From Pleurotus ostreatus/Saccharomyces cerevisiae fusant (lineage: Eukaryota > Opisthokonta), in assembly GCA_024196135.1 (NCBI GenBank), contig JAMQCK010000080.1:1-64000 (forward strand): 64,000 nt of DNA, in the 5' to 3' direction. This document shows, piece after piece, positions 53,484-62,893 of this stretch (positions are counted from its first letter, which is position 1; every line of letters begins with the position of its first letter). A model generated the notes under the pieces. That model had not been told where the DNA came from. It made no database searches and worked only from the letters and a program-made list of their open reading frames with translations. The translations under genes were made by a program, and so were the position numbers.

Positions 53484-54858
53484 CTACTCCTCCGCCACCA
53501 ACACAATCTTCTTCCCCTTGTTCACCCCCTTCTGCACATCCAGGATCGCCTGCCCGGAGTGCTCCAGGCCGTGCGAGACATCCTCCTTGTACTTGAAGGT
53601 GCCGTCCGCAAGGCGCGGGATCACCGTCTTCTCGAAGTCCTCCTTCCACGGCGCCTCGATCTCCCACTGGATGAAGCCGTTGAGGGAGAGGCGCTTGGCG
53701 ACGATGTTGACCATGTTCTGGGTAGGGGATGAGTACAAGGATAAACGAGTGTCTGGCGGCAGAAATGAAGAAAAACACACCTTAAACACCACCCCCTCCT
53801 TCGAGTTGTACCCCGAAATCATCCCGCACTCAATGAAGCGCGCAAAGTTCGCCGCCGCGCCGAGCGCCAGGTCGAGCGTCTCGCCGCCGACGTTGTCCCA
53901 GTACACGTTGATCGGGCCCTCCTTGTCGAGCACCTCCTTCGTCGACGTCGTCTTGTAGTTGAAGGCCACGTCCGCGCCGCACTCCTTCATGAAGGCCACC
54001 TTCTCGTCGCTGCCCGCAGACGCGATGACCTTCAGGCCGTCCTGCTTCGCGAGCTGGATGACCATGGAGCCGACGGGGCCGCCGCCGGCGGTGACGAAGG
54101 CGGTCTCGCCCTGGAGCAGGAGTTAGCGTTCGAGTAGAAGTTGGAGTGTTTGTGCGAGATACAACTCCTTTGGAGTCAAATCTCCACAACAGGACGGCGT
54201 ACCTTCTTCGCCTTCGCAAACGTGCGCCACGCGTTGTGCGCGGTCTTGCCCGGCATGCCCGCGACGCCGACGTAAAGCGAGAGCGGCACCTTGGGGTGCG
54301 GCTTGATGACCTCGACGCCCGCGAACGGGTTCGCGAGCTCCTCGGCGGTCTTGATGGTGTACTCTTCGTGCTCTGGGAAGGGTCGTCAGAAAAGGCGTCT
54401 TGGGAGTGAAAGAGGGGGCGTGAGAAAGCGAGGGCGACGAGATGAATCGGGGCGCAGGGAGATGTGGATGAGAAAGGAGTACGCACTCAGCTGCGACCGC
54501 ACAATATCACCCGGCTTAAGGTCAGGGTGCGTCGACTTGACGATCTTGCCAATCCCGTCCGTGTTAATGGGCTCGTTCAGCGGGTACGCGGGCTGGTATA
54601 TGCGTTGAGTATACATCAACAGTCGCCATGACGCTTCAGACGCACCGCATAACTCGGAATCTTCGGGTCCCTCATCCGGCCACGAATATAGGGATCGATA
54701 GACAGCACGAGCACCTTGATGAGCACCGAGTTGGCGGGCAACTGCACGGTGTCGAGGTCGATGGTGCCCGAACTATCATAGACAGTGGTCTTCCCGGGCT
54801 CGGGGTAGCCCTGCGGGATCTCCTTGTAGATGACCTTGGCGTTGCGGATGGGGGCCAT
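53484..54858 (-). CDS. zinc-independent MDR reductase (alkenal/prostaglandin reductase type)
   Basis: NADPH-dependent reductase of the medium-chain dehydrogenase superfamily, expected to reduce alpha,beta-unsaturated aldehydes or ketones. Exons 54646-54858, 54487-54592, 54203-54372, 53781-54110 and 53484-53717 encode 350 residues, usual for the family. The N-terminal part has SIDPYIRGRM, and the middle has GVAGMPGKTAHNAW. The nucleotide-binding motif is TAGGGPVGS, followed by VIASAGSDEKVAF and YWDNVGG. No Cys/His zinc ligands of classical alcohol dehydrogenases are seen. The C-terminus reads QAILDVQKGVNKGKKIVLV. It could detoxify lipid-peroxidation products, but the real substrate is unknown. 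Confidence 0.92.
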
Positions 54859-56282
54859 TGCGGATGTTGGGTGGTAGGTGGTAGGTGGTTGGGGGTAAGG
54901 AGATGGAAGATATGGAAAGTCGTTCTTCGACCTTCACTGCACACCTATTATATGCGTTGCCCTGACGTCGCCCCGCGGGACTTTATAAGCATGATCGACA
55001 TGGCGGGGGCGCGCTTGAAGGCGTAGCCGGAAGGCATAACCGGAGGCCGGATGATTAGAGAAGGTGGCCGGGTGATTAGAGAGGAGTCCCGGAGGGTTGG
55101 GGAAAAGGGCTGGAAGATTGGAGAGGATTGCAGGCGGATGACGAAGGGCTGGGCGGGTTCTCCCACATGGCTTGCTCAGCGTGAGCGCGATCGAGATGGG
55201 GGGCGATCGCGGGAGGATAAACGATCACGGGAGGCCCGGGGAGGGGGTGAATATTCGTGCGCGACGACGAGTTGGCGGCTGCTGACGGCGGGATGGCGGC
55301 TGCTGACGGCGGCTACCATGGTAGGCCCGCTGCTGAGTGAAGCGATTCTGCATGCGATAGTCAGCTACATTGGTGTCTGTCAGACTCTTGGCTTTGCTTA
55401 CAAGTGGGGCGTAAAGGTCTTATTGAAAGATCAGCGTTTACTGATCTTTCGCACCAACGAGTTCTATGGCCTCATCTACTGGATGGAAGGCGCTACGGCG
55501 AAAGTAAGGAAGTAAGACGCGCCGGCAAGTGTACAAAAGGTCTGACTGTGAAGAGAGGGTGCGCGAAGTGAAGGAAGGGGAAGTGATCAAGAGTTACGCG
55601 TCGACCTTCTCCGCGGGCCCAGCCTCCCGCCTTCGACGACAGCACAGCGAGAAGGCAAAGTAAGGAGGAAGTCAAGTGCAATAGTTCTATTGATCTACGT
55701 AGGGCATTGGCAGTACCAGTCTAAACAAGTACACAACGGCCACGACACCTCGTATAGGAGGGCATGTAGGTCCCACGAAGCCGAAGCCCTCTCCTCATGC
55801 CCGATCCCATCCTTCGTGGGCGCCAGCGCGAAGCGGCACCTCCAGACGAAACCAAGCACTCGGGCGAAGAGAGCTCGCGACTCCGACGAGACCCAGCACC
55901 GCCCAGCCTTTCGACGGGGCAGCACCTCCCAAAGGACCGCTCTCAAGCGACCCCCGGGCGTCTTTCTTGAGGACGGGAACGCGGACAAGGAGGCGGAAGA
56001 GCTGAACCGAGTCCGAACTTTTGTGTCCTCGAAGGTTTGTTCGAAGGGACGAAAATGCGCCGATCGCGCTTTTGACGCGCGGGGATTTCCCACGGGTCGC
56101 GATCAGGCACGTGGTTCGAGCGAGACGGTCACGGTTTAGTCACGGTTGCATTTTACGAGACTCGCGATGCGTGTCTGATTGTATTTGCTTTGTACACTGG
56201 GCAAAATACTAGTCGTACACTCCATAGAATCAAGTTCTCAGTTATATTGCGCTACTGGTCCCAGCATCCTCGGTTGGCTTCT
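54859..56282. other. intergenic region left of the foldback element
   Basis: Near 55270-55310 a GGCGGCTGCTGACGGCG-type unit occurs twice in tandem. A 149-codon plus-strand open frame (55690-56139) overlaps a 132-codon minus-strand one (55695-56093); neither has recognisable content. I see no supportable gene. Confidence 0.4.
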
Positions 56283-57021
56283 CACGGGTGGCGGACCGGA
56301 ATTTTGACCGGTAAAAAGGCGCGGGAAAAGGCGCGGAAAAACGGGCGTGAAAGGGAGCAGTTTTAGCGTGTCAATAAAGCACTGTTTGACTGGCGAAAAG
56401 GGTCGTGAAAACGGCTGTTAAACTGAGTGTGAAATCGAGTGCTTTTGGCAGGTCAAAAGGTGCGTGAAATAGGCGCCTATTTGCGCGCGTTTTTCCGTGT
56501 AAAAAGACGGCCAAAAAGGCGCCTTCTTCACGTGGCTTTTCACGTGCAAAGAGGCCACTTTTTTACAAGGAAAGATGGGCCCTTTTTCCAAGCCTTTTGA
56601 CGAATCTTTTCACTCGAGTTTTGACATGCCAAAACCGAGCCTTTGTTCCACATTTGTCAAAGAGGGACCTTTTGACGCGCCAAAATGTGAGTGAAGAGAT
56701 CCGTCAAAAGGCTTGGAAAAAGGGCCCATCTTTCCTTGTAAAAAAGTGGCCTCTTTGCACGTGAAAAGCCACGTGAAGAAGGCGCCTTTTTGGCCGTCTT
56801 TTTACACGGAAAAACGCGCGCAAATAGGCGCCTATTTCACGCACCTTTTGACCTGCCAAAAGCACTCGATTTCACACTCAGTTTAACAGCCGTTTTCACG
56901 ACCCTTTTCGCCAGTCAAACAGTGCTTTATTGACACGCTAAAACTGCTCCCTTTCACGCCCGTTTTTCCGCGCCTTTTCCCGCGCCTTTTTACCGGTCAA
57001 AATTCCGGTCCGCCACCCGTG
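56283..57021. mobile_element. 739-bp foldback (inverted-repeat) element with perfect 320-bp arms
   Basis: Positions 56283-56602 are the exact reverse complement of 56702-57021, read base by base. The 99-bp centre (56603-56701) continues the symmetry imperfectly around 56652. The ends are CACGGGTGGCGG...CCGCCACCCGTG. A possible 3-bp duplication TCT flanks it (56280-56282 and 57022-57024). There is no open frame for a transposase, so it would be a non-autonomous foldback/MITE-like element. CAC termini with a 3-bp duplication resemble the CACTA superfamily, but that is only a suggestion. Arm identity means recent origin or active homogenisation. The right arm overlaps the end of the TAN1 coding region. 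Confidence 0.92.
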
Positions 57022-59125
57022 TCTCCCCTTGCGTCTCAGCAGCCTCCACCGTAGGTGCATCAGCGACCTTCTCCTCGTGCACCCCGAGAGCCTTCTCCTC
57101 CGGTGCTCTAGCCTCAGCAAAATCATCCGCCGATGACCCAATAGCCTTCCCCACCGAGACCTCCGAACCCCCCGCCTCCCCCAACCGCGTCATACTCTCT
57201 TGCCCCTCACCCCTCGCATTGCACATCTTCGCTACCTCGCCGACGTTGAACTTGTGCAAACGGTAGTAGTCCTCGACAACGCCGATGCCGCATGTGCTCT
57301 GGAGGGGATATTGCCGGCATTAGCTCAAGTATCAACATACGAGAGATATCGGGTTATTGCCCTCGTTCTCGCCCCAACCCACAGAATTTCGCAAGGAAGC
57401 AATCACATCCCCGTAAATCAAATCGAGCTCACCTTAAACACCTCCACCAGCACAAACACCTCCGGGTCGTTCAAGTCCACGCTGAACCCCTCGGGCACGC
57501 ACTCCGCTACGGCCTGGATAATCGCCATACGCGTGAGGGTGCTGTGGTTGCGGATGCGGAGCTCGATTTTGTACTGAGCAGAGAATGAGTCACGCGAGGT
57601 CGGGCAGGAGGACGAGGGAGAAGGGAAGGGGTCAGTAAAGAGCAATGGGTCAGTAAAAAAACAATGGGGAAGGAGAAGATGAATGAAAGTTAGAATGCAA
57701 GGGGGTGAAGAGGTATAAAAGATAAGGGAAGGAACAATGTAAGGAATCAGTAGAGCAGATGATACACACCTTCGACGTCGCATTCACCCGCCCAGTCATA
57801 TACTTCAACCACGCATCGCGACAGAGCGCCTGGATCTCTGGGATGTTGGCGGTGCAAGAGCCAGAGACGGGGAGGAGGCGGTGCGTTTGTCTGGGAGGAG
57901 GAGGTTAGACGATGCATGGGGAGACTCAGACAATGGGAAATGGAGGATTGATCGTCACGAGAGAAAGTCAAACAAAGCGGGCATGAGGGATGCGAGCAGC
58001 ACGACCTTACCTCGTCCTCGTAATTCCCGTCATCTCCACGTTCTTCAGGTGCCGCATGACCAACACGACGGGGTCCACGGGCGGTCTGCACGCCATGAAG
58101 ACGACTGCGAGGGCAGGGTCTGGTAAGTAAGGTTCAAAAGGGCGTGTATAGGGTCTGCGTACCGCACTGCGTATCCGTGTGGCAGTTTTCTGTAACGGCG
58201 CATCAATATAGGTTCATGTCGCAGCAGTAACCGTTCGGGAGAAGCGCATCGAATGACAAAGTATGGGCTTAGGTTCCACGCAAGGGTGCATTGGGGAAAC
58301 AAGGGCTCATACGCACGTATTCTTTTCTCAGCTGCAGGTTTCTTGATACCGGCCACCTCCTTCGCGATCTGCGCTTCGATGCTGAGGTCTTCATCGTCGT
58401 CGGAATCATCTGCATTCGCGGGCTTCATAGAGGATCCCTCAGTCTCCCCTACTTCACCCTCCGTTGGAGGCCATATTTCTGCCGATAACTGTCATAAGGG
58501 TGGTCAATTGAGAGAATCATCATCAAACGGAGAGACCGACCTACAGACTCGAACAGATCGTAGAGCTCCCCAACAGTCTGGCGCTCCTTCCCTCGCGGAC
58601 CTGCGCGAGGTATACATGTAAGTTGACCGTCGACGACATGACAGGAATATGACAGCGCGCGTGATGGGGACGGGGGAGAGATTGCACGAGGGGGACGAGG
58701 GATGTACTTCGACGCGGACATAGTGCCGCAAACAATAGTGGGCACGGCTGGGGAATCAACATGCATGCCTACACGCGACCGGGGGATGTACCTGCAAGAG
58801 GAGATGGATCAACATGAGGGAATGAACTTACAAGTCGCCCAGATCCCCGGACCCTCGATCGTGGGCTTCGTCCAGATGGGTGTGCCGTCCTGTGAGAGGT
58901 TGCGGTCAGCGACGATGTGGGATGACGTTGGGATGGGCAGAAAGGGGGTCCTAGGATGGACCGTAGAGAGAGGGGAGCGGGAAGGAGGAAGGGGGGAGGA
59001 CAGGGACGATGTTCAGCTATACTCACGCTCCGATATTTCTTCTTCTTCTGCCCCATCTCCCGATTCCTGTCGTTCTTTCCGCCTCTTGCTCCCTTCATCG
59101 CGCCCTTCGTCGTATCCTTGGGCAT
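56990..59125 (-). CDS. TAN1: tRNA acetyltransferase cofactor TAN1 (THUMP domain)
   Basis: Adaptor that with Kre33/NAT10 makes N4-acetylcytidine at position 12 of tRNA-Ser and tRNA-Leu. Nine exons: 59027-59125, 58832-58889, 58545-58600, 58317-58488, 58163-58189, 58011-58119, 57770-57890, 57433-57573, 56990-57298; 363 residues. The N-terminus is Lys-rich (GQKKKKY). SIEAQIAKEVAGIKKP begins the conserved part, then VVFMACRPPVDP, and the THUMP end is YKIELRIRNHSTLTR with FVLVEVFK. After YYRLHKFNV comes an acidic tail. Its last ten residues (TRVADRNFDR, the first codon shared with flank) and TAA lie in the foldback right arm. A natural stop has probably been replaced by the insertion. Confidence 0.9.
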
Positions 59126-61508: not shown

Positions 61509-62893
61509 ATGGCTTCCGGAGTTGTTAACATTCGCCGCGATGTGGACGACAAGTTCTACCGCTACCGGTGCGTCACACGTTCCACTACCCAAGGCACATA
61601 CTGACCCGCCCCCAGCATGCCCGTTCTGACCACCAAGATCGAGGGCAAGGGCAACGGCATCAAGACCGTACTCCCCAACATGTCCGACGTGGCGCGCGCG
61701 CTCTCACGCCCGCCCACCTACCCCACCAAGTTCTTCGGCTGCGAGCTCGGCGCGCAGACCTCCTTCGACGAAAAGAACGACCGCTACATCGTGAACGGCG
61801 CGCACGACGCGACCCGCCTCCGCGAGCTCCTCGACGGCTTCATCGACAAGTTCGTCCTCTGCAAGGCGTGCAAGAACCCGGAGACGGACCTCGTGATCCT
61901 CAAGCAGGGCCGCTCCGAGGACATCATCCGCGACTGCAAGGCGTGCGGCGAGCGCACCGGCGTGGACATGCGCCACAAGCTCACGACGTTCATCATCAAG
62001 AACCCGCCCGTGAAGGTGAAGAAGGGCAAGAAGCGCACCGGGGCGGGCGATGCGGCCGCGGGCGTCGGGGGCGGCGGCGCGGACACGCCCGGGAACGGCG
62101 AGGCTGGCGATGGTGGTGCTGAGTCCGACGACGAGCTGACGAAGAAGATCAAGGCGGAGGCCGCCGAGCTCAATCAGGAGACGCAGATCGGGAAGGAGGA
62201 CTGGTCCGCGGACACGTCGCCCGAGGCCGTCAAGCAGCGCATCAAGGCGCTCGAGGGCGCCATGGGCAACGTCGCGCTCAACGGAGACGATGAGGGCAGC
62301 GACGACGACGCGAACAGCCCGTACGGCCAGCTCGGCCGCTGGATCGAGGAGAACCGTGATGAGGAAGAGCCGAAGGCGTTCGCGATCGCGATCTTCAAGA
62401 AGGCGCAGGACCTTGGCATCGACAAGAAGCACAAGACGGTGCTCGTGCTCGTGCAGGCGCTCTTCACCGAGGATGTGCTCAAGGAGGTCCGCGCGTATGC
62501 GCCGCTGCTTGTTAAGGTGTGTTTCGTATGCCCCGCTCGTCGATCTCTACTGACATCGCTTTAGCTCGTCACCTCCGAGAAGCACCAGAAGGCTCTTCTG
62601 GGCGGTATCGAGCGCCTCGTCGGCATCACCCACCCCGACCTCATCCCCGCCGTCCCCAAGATCCTCATGGAGCTCTACCAGGCCGACATCCTCGAGGAGG
62701 AGGTCGTCAAGAACTGGGGCACGCACGTCAGTAAGAAGTACACCGACAAGGATACTAGCAAGCGGGTCAGGAAGGCGAGCGAGCCGTTCCTCAAGGTATG
62801 TTGCGAGTGATTGTGAACGAGGTGGATGGTCGCTGATCGTATCTGCAGTGGCTCGACGAGGCGGACGACGATGATGACGATGACGATGAGTAG
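61509..62893 (+). CDS. TIF5: translation initiation factor eIF5
   Basis: GTPase-activating protein for eIF2 and scaffold of the 43S pre-initiation complex. Exons 61509-61567, 61616-62516, 62565-62795 and 62849-62893 encode 411 residues. The N-terminal domain has FYRYRMP, where Arg18 matches the catalytic finger Arg15 of human eIF5, and EGKGNGIKT. The C4 zinc finger uses CKAC and CKAC (about 103-137). An acidic linker follows, then the C-terminal HEAT/W2 domain with [12 protein letters not shown] and LVKNWG-like motifs ([10 protein letters not shown]). The end is [14 protein letters not shown], the acidic-aromatic box that binds eIF2beta and eIF3. Codon use is strongly GC-biased, as for highly expressed genes. 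Confidence 0.96.

What the first reader, a model, noticed from the sequence alone, without database searches (positions are those of the whole stretch)
56283..57021. Foldback element with 320-bp arms identical to the base
Reading both strands shows 56283-56602 and 56702-57021 as exact reverse complements, with the 99-bp centre also partly symmetric. It encodes no transposase. Perfect long palindromes are unstable and drift quickly, so this one is either very young or kept identical by some process. The sequence is A/T-run-rich and has its own character (runs such as TTTTTCC and GGCGCCTATT) unlike the flanking GC-rich DNA.
Basis: seen in the sequence. Interest (0 to 1): 0.9.

Follow-up and report, generated by a model that had tools for sequence, protein, structure and literature searches.

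The report
Foldback transposon with strand-coded A/T ladder
A 739-base palindromic insertion, most likely a jumping gene, sits in the last codons of a TAN1-like gene of a mushroom that is likely a Schizophyllum; it is built from short A or T runs spaced about every 11.7 bases, whose strand order near the end is shared with otherwise different elements of the same genome, likely because the proteins that would move it dock on that ladder.

Summary
The palindrome is real: 320-bp arms, 320/320 complementary, at 56283-57021. It is a clean insertion with a 3-bp target duplication (TCT): removing it and one TCT restores the C-terminal tail that four Schizophyllum commune TAN1-like proteins carry uninterrupted. 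This argues strongly against a false join and points to a Schizophyllum-like host, not a polypore. The same genome holds at least two more families with CACGRGTGGC termini and the same phasing. Counted from the terminus, the strand (A-run or T-run) of successive runs is identical over 17 of 17 slots between families 2 and 3, and over the first 10 in the window element, while linkers between runs are at or near chance identity. Best reading: a non-autonomous foldback transposon made of two inverted copies of one transposon end, whose ladder is likely an oriented array of docking sites for a transposase or TNPA-like partner. Termini and duplication fit fungal EnSpm/CACTA, but no matching transposase was found, so membership is unproven.

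The parts
56283..57021 (.). Foldback element, 739 bp, A/T runs phased at about 11.7 bp throughout
56283..56602 (+). left arm, 320 bp, begins CACGGGTGGCGGACCGG
   Evidence: 320/320 complementary to right arm
56603..56701 (.). centre, 99 bp, diverged; would be the hairpin loop region
   Evidence: 43 of 99 columns mismatched, counted on both sides
56702..57021 (-). right arm, 320 bp, ends ...CCGGTCCGCCACCCGTG
56280..56282 (.). target duplication TCT, left copy
   Evidence: sequence; empty-site reconstruction
57022..57024 (.). target duplication TCT, right copy
56990..57298 (-). last exon of a TAN1-like gene; 57021-56990 (10 codons and stop) now come from the element. Exon start placed by eye
57433..57573 (-). 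THUMP-domain exon of the same gene (ends placed by eye)
   Evidence: PF02926, E 1.1e-10 in ORF 57418-57783
56244..56279 (-). former last codons of the gene, now cut off by the element (read KPTEDAGTSSAI* when flanks are joined)
   Evidence: coordinates approximate

Best explanation
This is a 739-bp insertion with CAC...GTG termini and a 3-bp target duplication, most likely a non-autonomous cut-and-paste DNA transposon made of two inverted copies of one transposon end, whose A/T runs, phased about every 11.7 bp, would serve as an oriented ladder of docking sites for a transposase or TNPA-like partner supplied from elsewhere. Shown: boundaries, target duplication, insertion into the end of a TAN1-like gene, phasing, and related families with similar termini and the same strand order near the terminus but different linkers. 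Inferred: mobilisation by an EnSpm/CACTA-like (CMCT clade) DDE transposase; the ladder as a protein-binding array; origin of the foldback by inverted duplication of an end like that of family 3; exact arm identity through recent formation or arm-to-arm correction, the diverged centre being what such correction would not reach.
For: Empty site: joined flanks minus one TCT read ETQGEKPTEDAGTSSAI*, as in S. commune P0001-P0004. Phasing: half-element power 99.2, maximum 30.7 in 1000 shuffles, maximum 19.1 elsewhere in the window; 29 of 31 slots, rms 0.70 bp. Related elements: C785, C550, C647, C1 and C1256, C365; each of six tested end stretches beats all of 500 shuffles, the family-3 interior does not. 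Strand order: C785 both arms and C1256 identical 17/17; C785 right arm against C1256 23/27, reached by 3 of 20000 permutations, linkers 0.431 against 0.428 off-slot; window element shares the first 10 slots. CAC..GTG with 3-bp duplications in fungal EnSpm (PMC12730594, passages); subterminal arrays of short direct and inverted repeats bound by TNPA, 12-bp motif in En-1 (PMC2613891, passages).
Against: No transposase with these ends was found: of 7 Transposase_21 matches, 3 were read over 9 kb and show no CACGRGTGG and no ladder. Target duplications of the other copies are not exact: C785 TCG/TCA, C550 TCA/TAT, C647 TGG/TGA. The pentamer is CACGG/CACGA, not CACTA. Window element against C1256 over 28 slots: 19/28, 1286 of 20000 permutations reach it; against C785 right 18/27, 1269 of 20000. 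Some linker excess exists between the window element and family 2 and between C550 and C1256. No inverted second end is known for family 3.
Confidence: 0.57

Rival explanations
1. The ladder is shared ancestry plus mutation bias: GC-rich, CpG-containing linkers mutate fast and A/T runs slowly, so runs and strand order persist without selection.
For: Linkers hold 16-29 CpG per arm; unit-shuffle alignment gives some residual similarity, e.g. window against C785 right 0 of 300, C785 right against C1256 1 of 300, though that score includes strand order; among family-2 copies runs and linkers differ only weakly in change rate, 11/214 against 12/142, 17/209 and 8/70.
Against: Linkers stay 61-70% GC, not what C-to-T decay leaves; run positions stay within a few bases over 28 slots; linkers of C1256 against both C785 arms are at chance.
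Confidence: 0.27
2. The phased A/T runs act by DNA shape (bending, superhelix or nucleosome exclusion) and not as individual protein sites.
For: Runs of either strand fill slots of constant spacing; 11.65 bp exceeds a 10.5-bp helix by 39 degrees per step, one superturn per 9.1 units (arithmetic).
Against: Shape alone would hardly need the same strand order in different families; the spacing is not the helical repeat.
Confidence: 0.22
3. The element matters as an RNA hairpin: read-through from the TAN1-like gene makes double-stranded RNA.
For: Hairpin of -699 kcal/mol; the gene now ends inside the element.
Against: Family 3 has the ladder on one side without a nearby inverted copy; AATAAA at base 91 from either end may end transcripts early.
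Confidence: 0.08
4. False inverted join in the assembly.
For: 1277 contigs; no reads can be inspected here.
Against: Flanks are contiguous in relatives and a target duplication is present; a second foldback with diverged arms exists at C785.
Confidence: 0.03

Closest known systems
Fungal EnSpm/CACTA (CMCT clade; PMC12730594, passages read)
   Same: CAC...GTG termini and 3-bp target duplication
   Different: no transposase linked to it here; element is only two ends; CACGG/CACGA instead of CACTA
Plant En/Spm and Tgmt subterminal arrays (PMC2613891, passages read)
   Same: several hundred bases of short direct and inverted units with GC-rich and AT-rich parts next to the terminus; 12-bp unit in En-1
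   Different: there a sequence motif is repeated; here run spacing and strand order are kept and linkers are not
Foldback-like Galileo (PMC3573991, passages read)
   Same: copies made only of long inverted arms with internal repetition
   Different: P superfamily; the internal repeats described there are longer tandem repeats (about 210 bp), no 11.7-bp ladder
Scooter of Schizophyllum commune (recalled, no call)
   Same: non-autonomous DNA element of the same genus
   Different: 8-bp target duplication and hAT-like, as recalled
Periodic An/Tn clusters of C. elegans (recalled, no call)
   Same: phased A/T runs
   Different: about 10-bp period, not transposon ends, as recalled

Membership tests
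EnSpm/CACTA (CMCT) | CAC...GTG termini | tested here: met
   sequence; criterion from PMC12730594
EnSpm/CACTA (CMCT) | 3-bp target duplication | tested here: met
   window element TCT/TCT with empty site; other copies 0 of 3 exact
EnSpm/CACTA (CMCT) | subterminal array of short direct and inverted units | tested here: met
   ladder in both strands; unit is not a fixed motif
EnSpm/CACTA (CMCT) | DDE transposase of this clade encoded by an element with these ends | tested here: inconclusive
   7 Transposase_21 matches; 3 read over 9 kb, the other 4 over their short search loci, none with the ladder
EnSpm/CACTA (CMCT) | CACTA core pentamer (plant elements) | tested here: not met
   CACGG / CACGA
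PlavakaB / PlavakaA | CATCA..TGATG / TGT..ACA termini | tested here: not met
   criterion from PMC12730594; ends are CACGGGTGG
hAT (incl. Scooter) | 8-bp target duplication | tested here: not met
   3 bp; 8 bp for hAT in PMC4763223, for Scooter recalled
Foldback / Galileo (P superfamily) | long inverted arms with internal repetition | tested here: met
Foldback / Galileo (P superfamily) | P-type transposase | not tested
   no search for it was made

The most novel reading that the evidence does not exclude
Transposon ends recognised by a spaced strand code: a lineage of mushroom DNA transposons whose ends are defined by which strand carries the A-run at each 11.65-bp step over hundreds of bases, with the sequence between runs free to change, read by a protein filament or oligomer wound along the end. 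The foldback elements are two such codes joined back to back.
Probability: 0.33. Interest if true: 0.88.

Novelty: new variant of a known kind. Interest (0 to 1): 0.72.

Why it matters
Subterminal repeats of CACTA-type elements are known to diverge together with their binding proteins. Here what is kept looks like a geometry, run spacing and strand order, not a motif. That would be an unusual way for a transposase complex to know its ends, and it is directly testable by moving or flipping runs. It also gives a search key (CACGRGTGGC plus an 11.65-bp ladder) for the autonomous partner and for elements that similarity searches miss because their linkers are unrelated. Locally it is a young, apparently polymorphic insertion that changes the C-terminus and 3' end of a TAN1-like gene.

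Tried and rejected
Plavaka as parent: termini do not fit. The second element was met in the flank of a Plavaka fragment on C550 (L045), but it is a 188-bp element complete in itself and the nearness looks accidental. Copies of the window element by terminus: 15 sites within 3 mismatches against 14 for the reversed pattern, so only its own two ends stand out. L008 and L011, which resemble the terminus by 3 mismatches, are 85% alike over 3 kb and show no ladder. Family-3 interior and beyond: 9 of the 18 ORFs listed were scanned, none above a Pfam cut-off; the DNA beyond its shared part is single copy. Rfam: no match in 55000-58500. Paper searches (listings seen) showed no description of such a ladder; one search returned mostly papers on animal mites and none, so these searches are weak evidence of absence. 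Passages were read of PMC12730594, PMC1636069, PMC2613891, PMC8978399, PMC4763223 and PMC3573991; no paper was read whole.

Full report
The palindrome. 56283-57021 is 739 bp; its outer 320 bp on each side are exact reverse complements (320/320). The centre is partly symmetric (43 of 99 columns mismatched, counted on both sides). Folded as RNA it is one hairpin, -699 kcal/mol against a mean of -230 for 20 shuffles. DNA search of the 40.05-Mb assembly finds no second copy; by terminus pattern, 15 sites within 3 mismatches against 14 for the reversed control, so only its own two ends stand out.

Clean insertion. On the minus strand the right flank is the end of a gene with a THUMP domain (PF02926). 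Its relatives include proteins named tRNA acetyltransferase TAN1, and the four best are Schizophyllum commune at 79-84% (the query was spliced by eye and held a guessed stretch). In the window the frame runs ten codons into the element and stops there. With the flanks joined, without the element and one TCT, it reads ...ETQGEKPTEDAGTSSAI*. S. commune P0001, P0002, P0003 and P0004 end in ETQGKKPAEDFGTGSAVL, ETQGEKPAEEAETSSAVL, ETQGEDEEASSAVL and TQEEKPAEEAETSSVVL. So the flanks belong together, the target duplication is 3 bp, and four alleles lack the insertion. The fungus is Schizophyllum-like (Agaricales). The insertion replaces the last 12 residues by 10 from the element and moves the stop and 3' UTR into the hairpin; the effect is untested.

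The ladder. Runs of three or more A or T recur about every 11.7 bp. In one half, 29 of 31 slots are filled, rms deviation 0.70 bp. Spectral power is 99.2; 1000 dinucleotide shuffles reach at most 30.7, and among 2500 windows of 350 bp elsewhere in the 64 kb the maximum is 19.1. One half was used because the other repeats it.

Relatives. Scanning the first 55 loci for the ladder showed a second element on contig C550. DNA and terminus searches then gave family 2: C785:7748-8312 (565 bp; arms 143 of 161 aligned bases alike beyond the terminus), C550:6036-6223 (188 bp), C647:140648-140767 (a short derivative) and a fragment on C1. They also gave family 3: C1256 from 68200 and C365 from 1481, 97% alike over 680 bp, with the ladder in the first ~375 bp and unphased DNA after it. 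Termini are CACGGGTGGCGGACCGG, CACGAGTGGCAAGGCG and CACGAGTGGCAAGGTG. A 23-base degenerate terminus pattern gave 16 sites against 2 for the reversed control: 7 are ends of these elements, 2 are the L008/L011 pair, 1 (C835, L015) was held and shows no ladder, 6 were not read. Six end stretches tested each exceed all of 500 shuffles; the family-3 interior does not. All 18 of 1600 non-redundant 150-bp windows above power 20 in the fetched loci lie in these elements.

Strand order. On a fixed grid (first slot 21.5, step 11.65, chosen after inspection) each slot is called A-run or T-run. Both C785 arms and C1256 read TAAAATATAATTAATAT for the first 17 slots (coin-toss chance 7.6e-6). C785 right arm against C1256 is 23/27 (3 of 20000 permutations reach it; slot-shifted controls average 0.51, maximum 0.73); left arm 21/27 (60 of 20000). 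The 6-bp linkers agree no more than linkers of different slots (0.431 against 0.428; 0.422 against 0.405). The window element shares the first ten calls (TAAAATATAA), a cut made after seeing them, and departs at slots 11-12; over all slots its agreement is not significant (19/28 with C1256, 1286 of 20000; 18/27 with C785 right, 1269 of 20000; 17/27 with C785 left, 2674 of 20000). Its linkers are at chance against C1256 and C785 left and slightly above for C785 right (0.49 against 0.458). All.

Results that soften this. A run-centred linker count shows some excess between the window element and family 2 (0.40-0.45 against 0.29-0.31 in the first ten slots) and between C550 and C1256 (0.40 against 0.32), none between the window element and C1256 (0.24 against 0.30). 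A unit-shuffle alignment test gives residual similarity for some pairs (window against C785 right 0 of 300 shuffles reach it, left 7; C785 right against C1256 1, left 14; window against C1256 44) but its score includes strand order. So distant common descent is likely; what stands out is that runs and strand outlast the linkers. Among family-2 copies, runs changed in 11 of 214 cells and linkers in 12/142, 17/209 and 8/70, a weak difference.

Mechanism. CAC..GTG termini with 3-bp duplications are reported for fungal EnSpm families (PMC12730594, passages). [quoted passage not shown] repeats and binding proteins diverge between families (PMC2613891, passages; PMC8978399, passage). The ladder is most simply such an array, with the unusual property that spacing and strand are kept better than sequence. 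The window element is then two such ends joined back to back with nothing between. Formation from a family-3-like end and arm correction are inference. No transposase with these ends was found, so EnSpm membership is not claimed.

Limits. No reads, no expression data, no other strain's DNA. The far end of family 3 is not established: the shared sequence stops at CCCTCAC without an inverted terminus. DNA shape and neutral mutation bias are live rivals; linkers of 61-70% GC speak against simple decay.

Noticed in passing
L084 (C1256 from 68200) and L080 (C365, 1481 downward): Family 3: one end with CACGAGTGGCAAGGTG and ~375 bp of ladder, then ~470 bp of shared unphased DNA that stops at CCCTCAC without an inverted end; may be part of a larger element.
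   Followed up: partly
L058 (C550:6036-6223): 188-bp copy whose right end (CACGGGTGCACC) differs from its left (CACGAGTGGTAGGG) and resembles the terminus of the window element.
   Followed up: partly
window 56373-56378 (+) and 56926-56931 (-): AATAAA 91 bases in from each end, readable from both sides; could end transcripts of the TAN1-like gene.
   Followed up: no
window 55351-55750: Weak 11.0-bp periodicity of A/T runs (power 19.1), the highest outside the element; may be chance.
   Followed up: no
own genome: 44 Plavaka (PF18759) and 7 Transposase_21 (PF02992) matches, many with open frames: CMC-type transposases are present in this genome.
   Followed up: partly
window 53484-54122 (-) and 61605-62564 (+): Zinc-type dehydrogenase (PF00107) and IF2B/IF5-domain (PF01873) genes near the element.
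   Followed up: no
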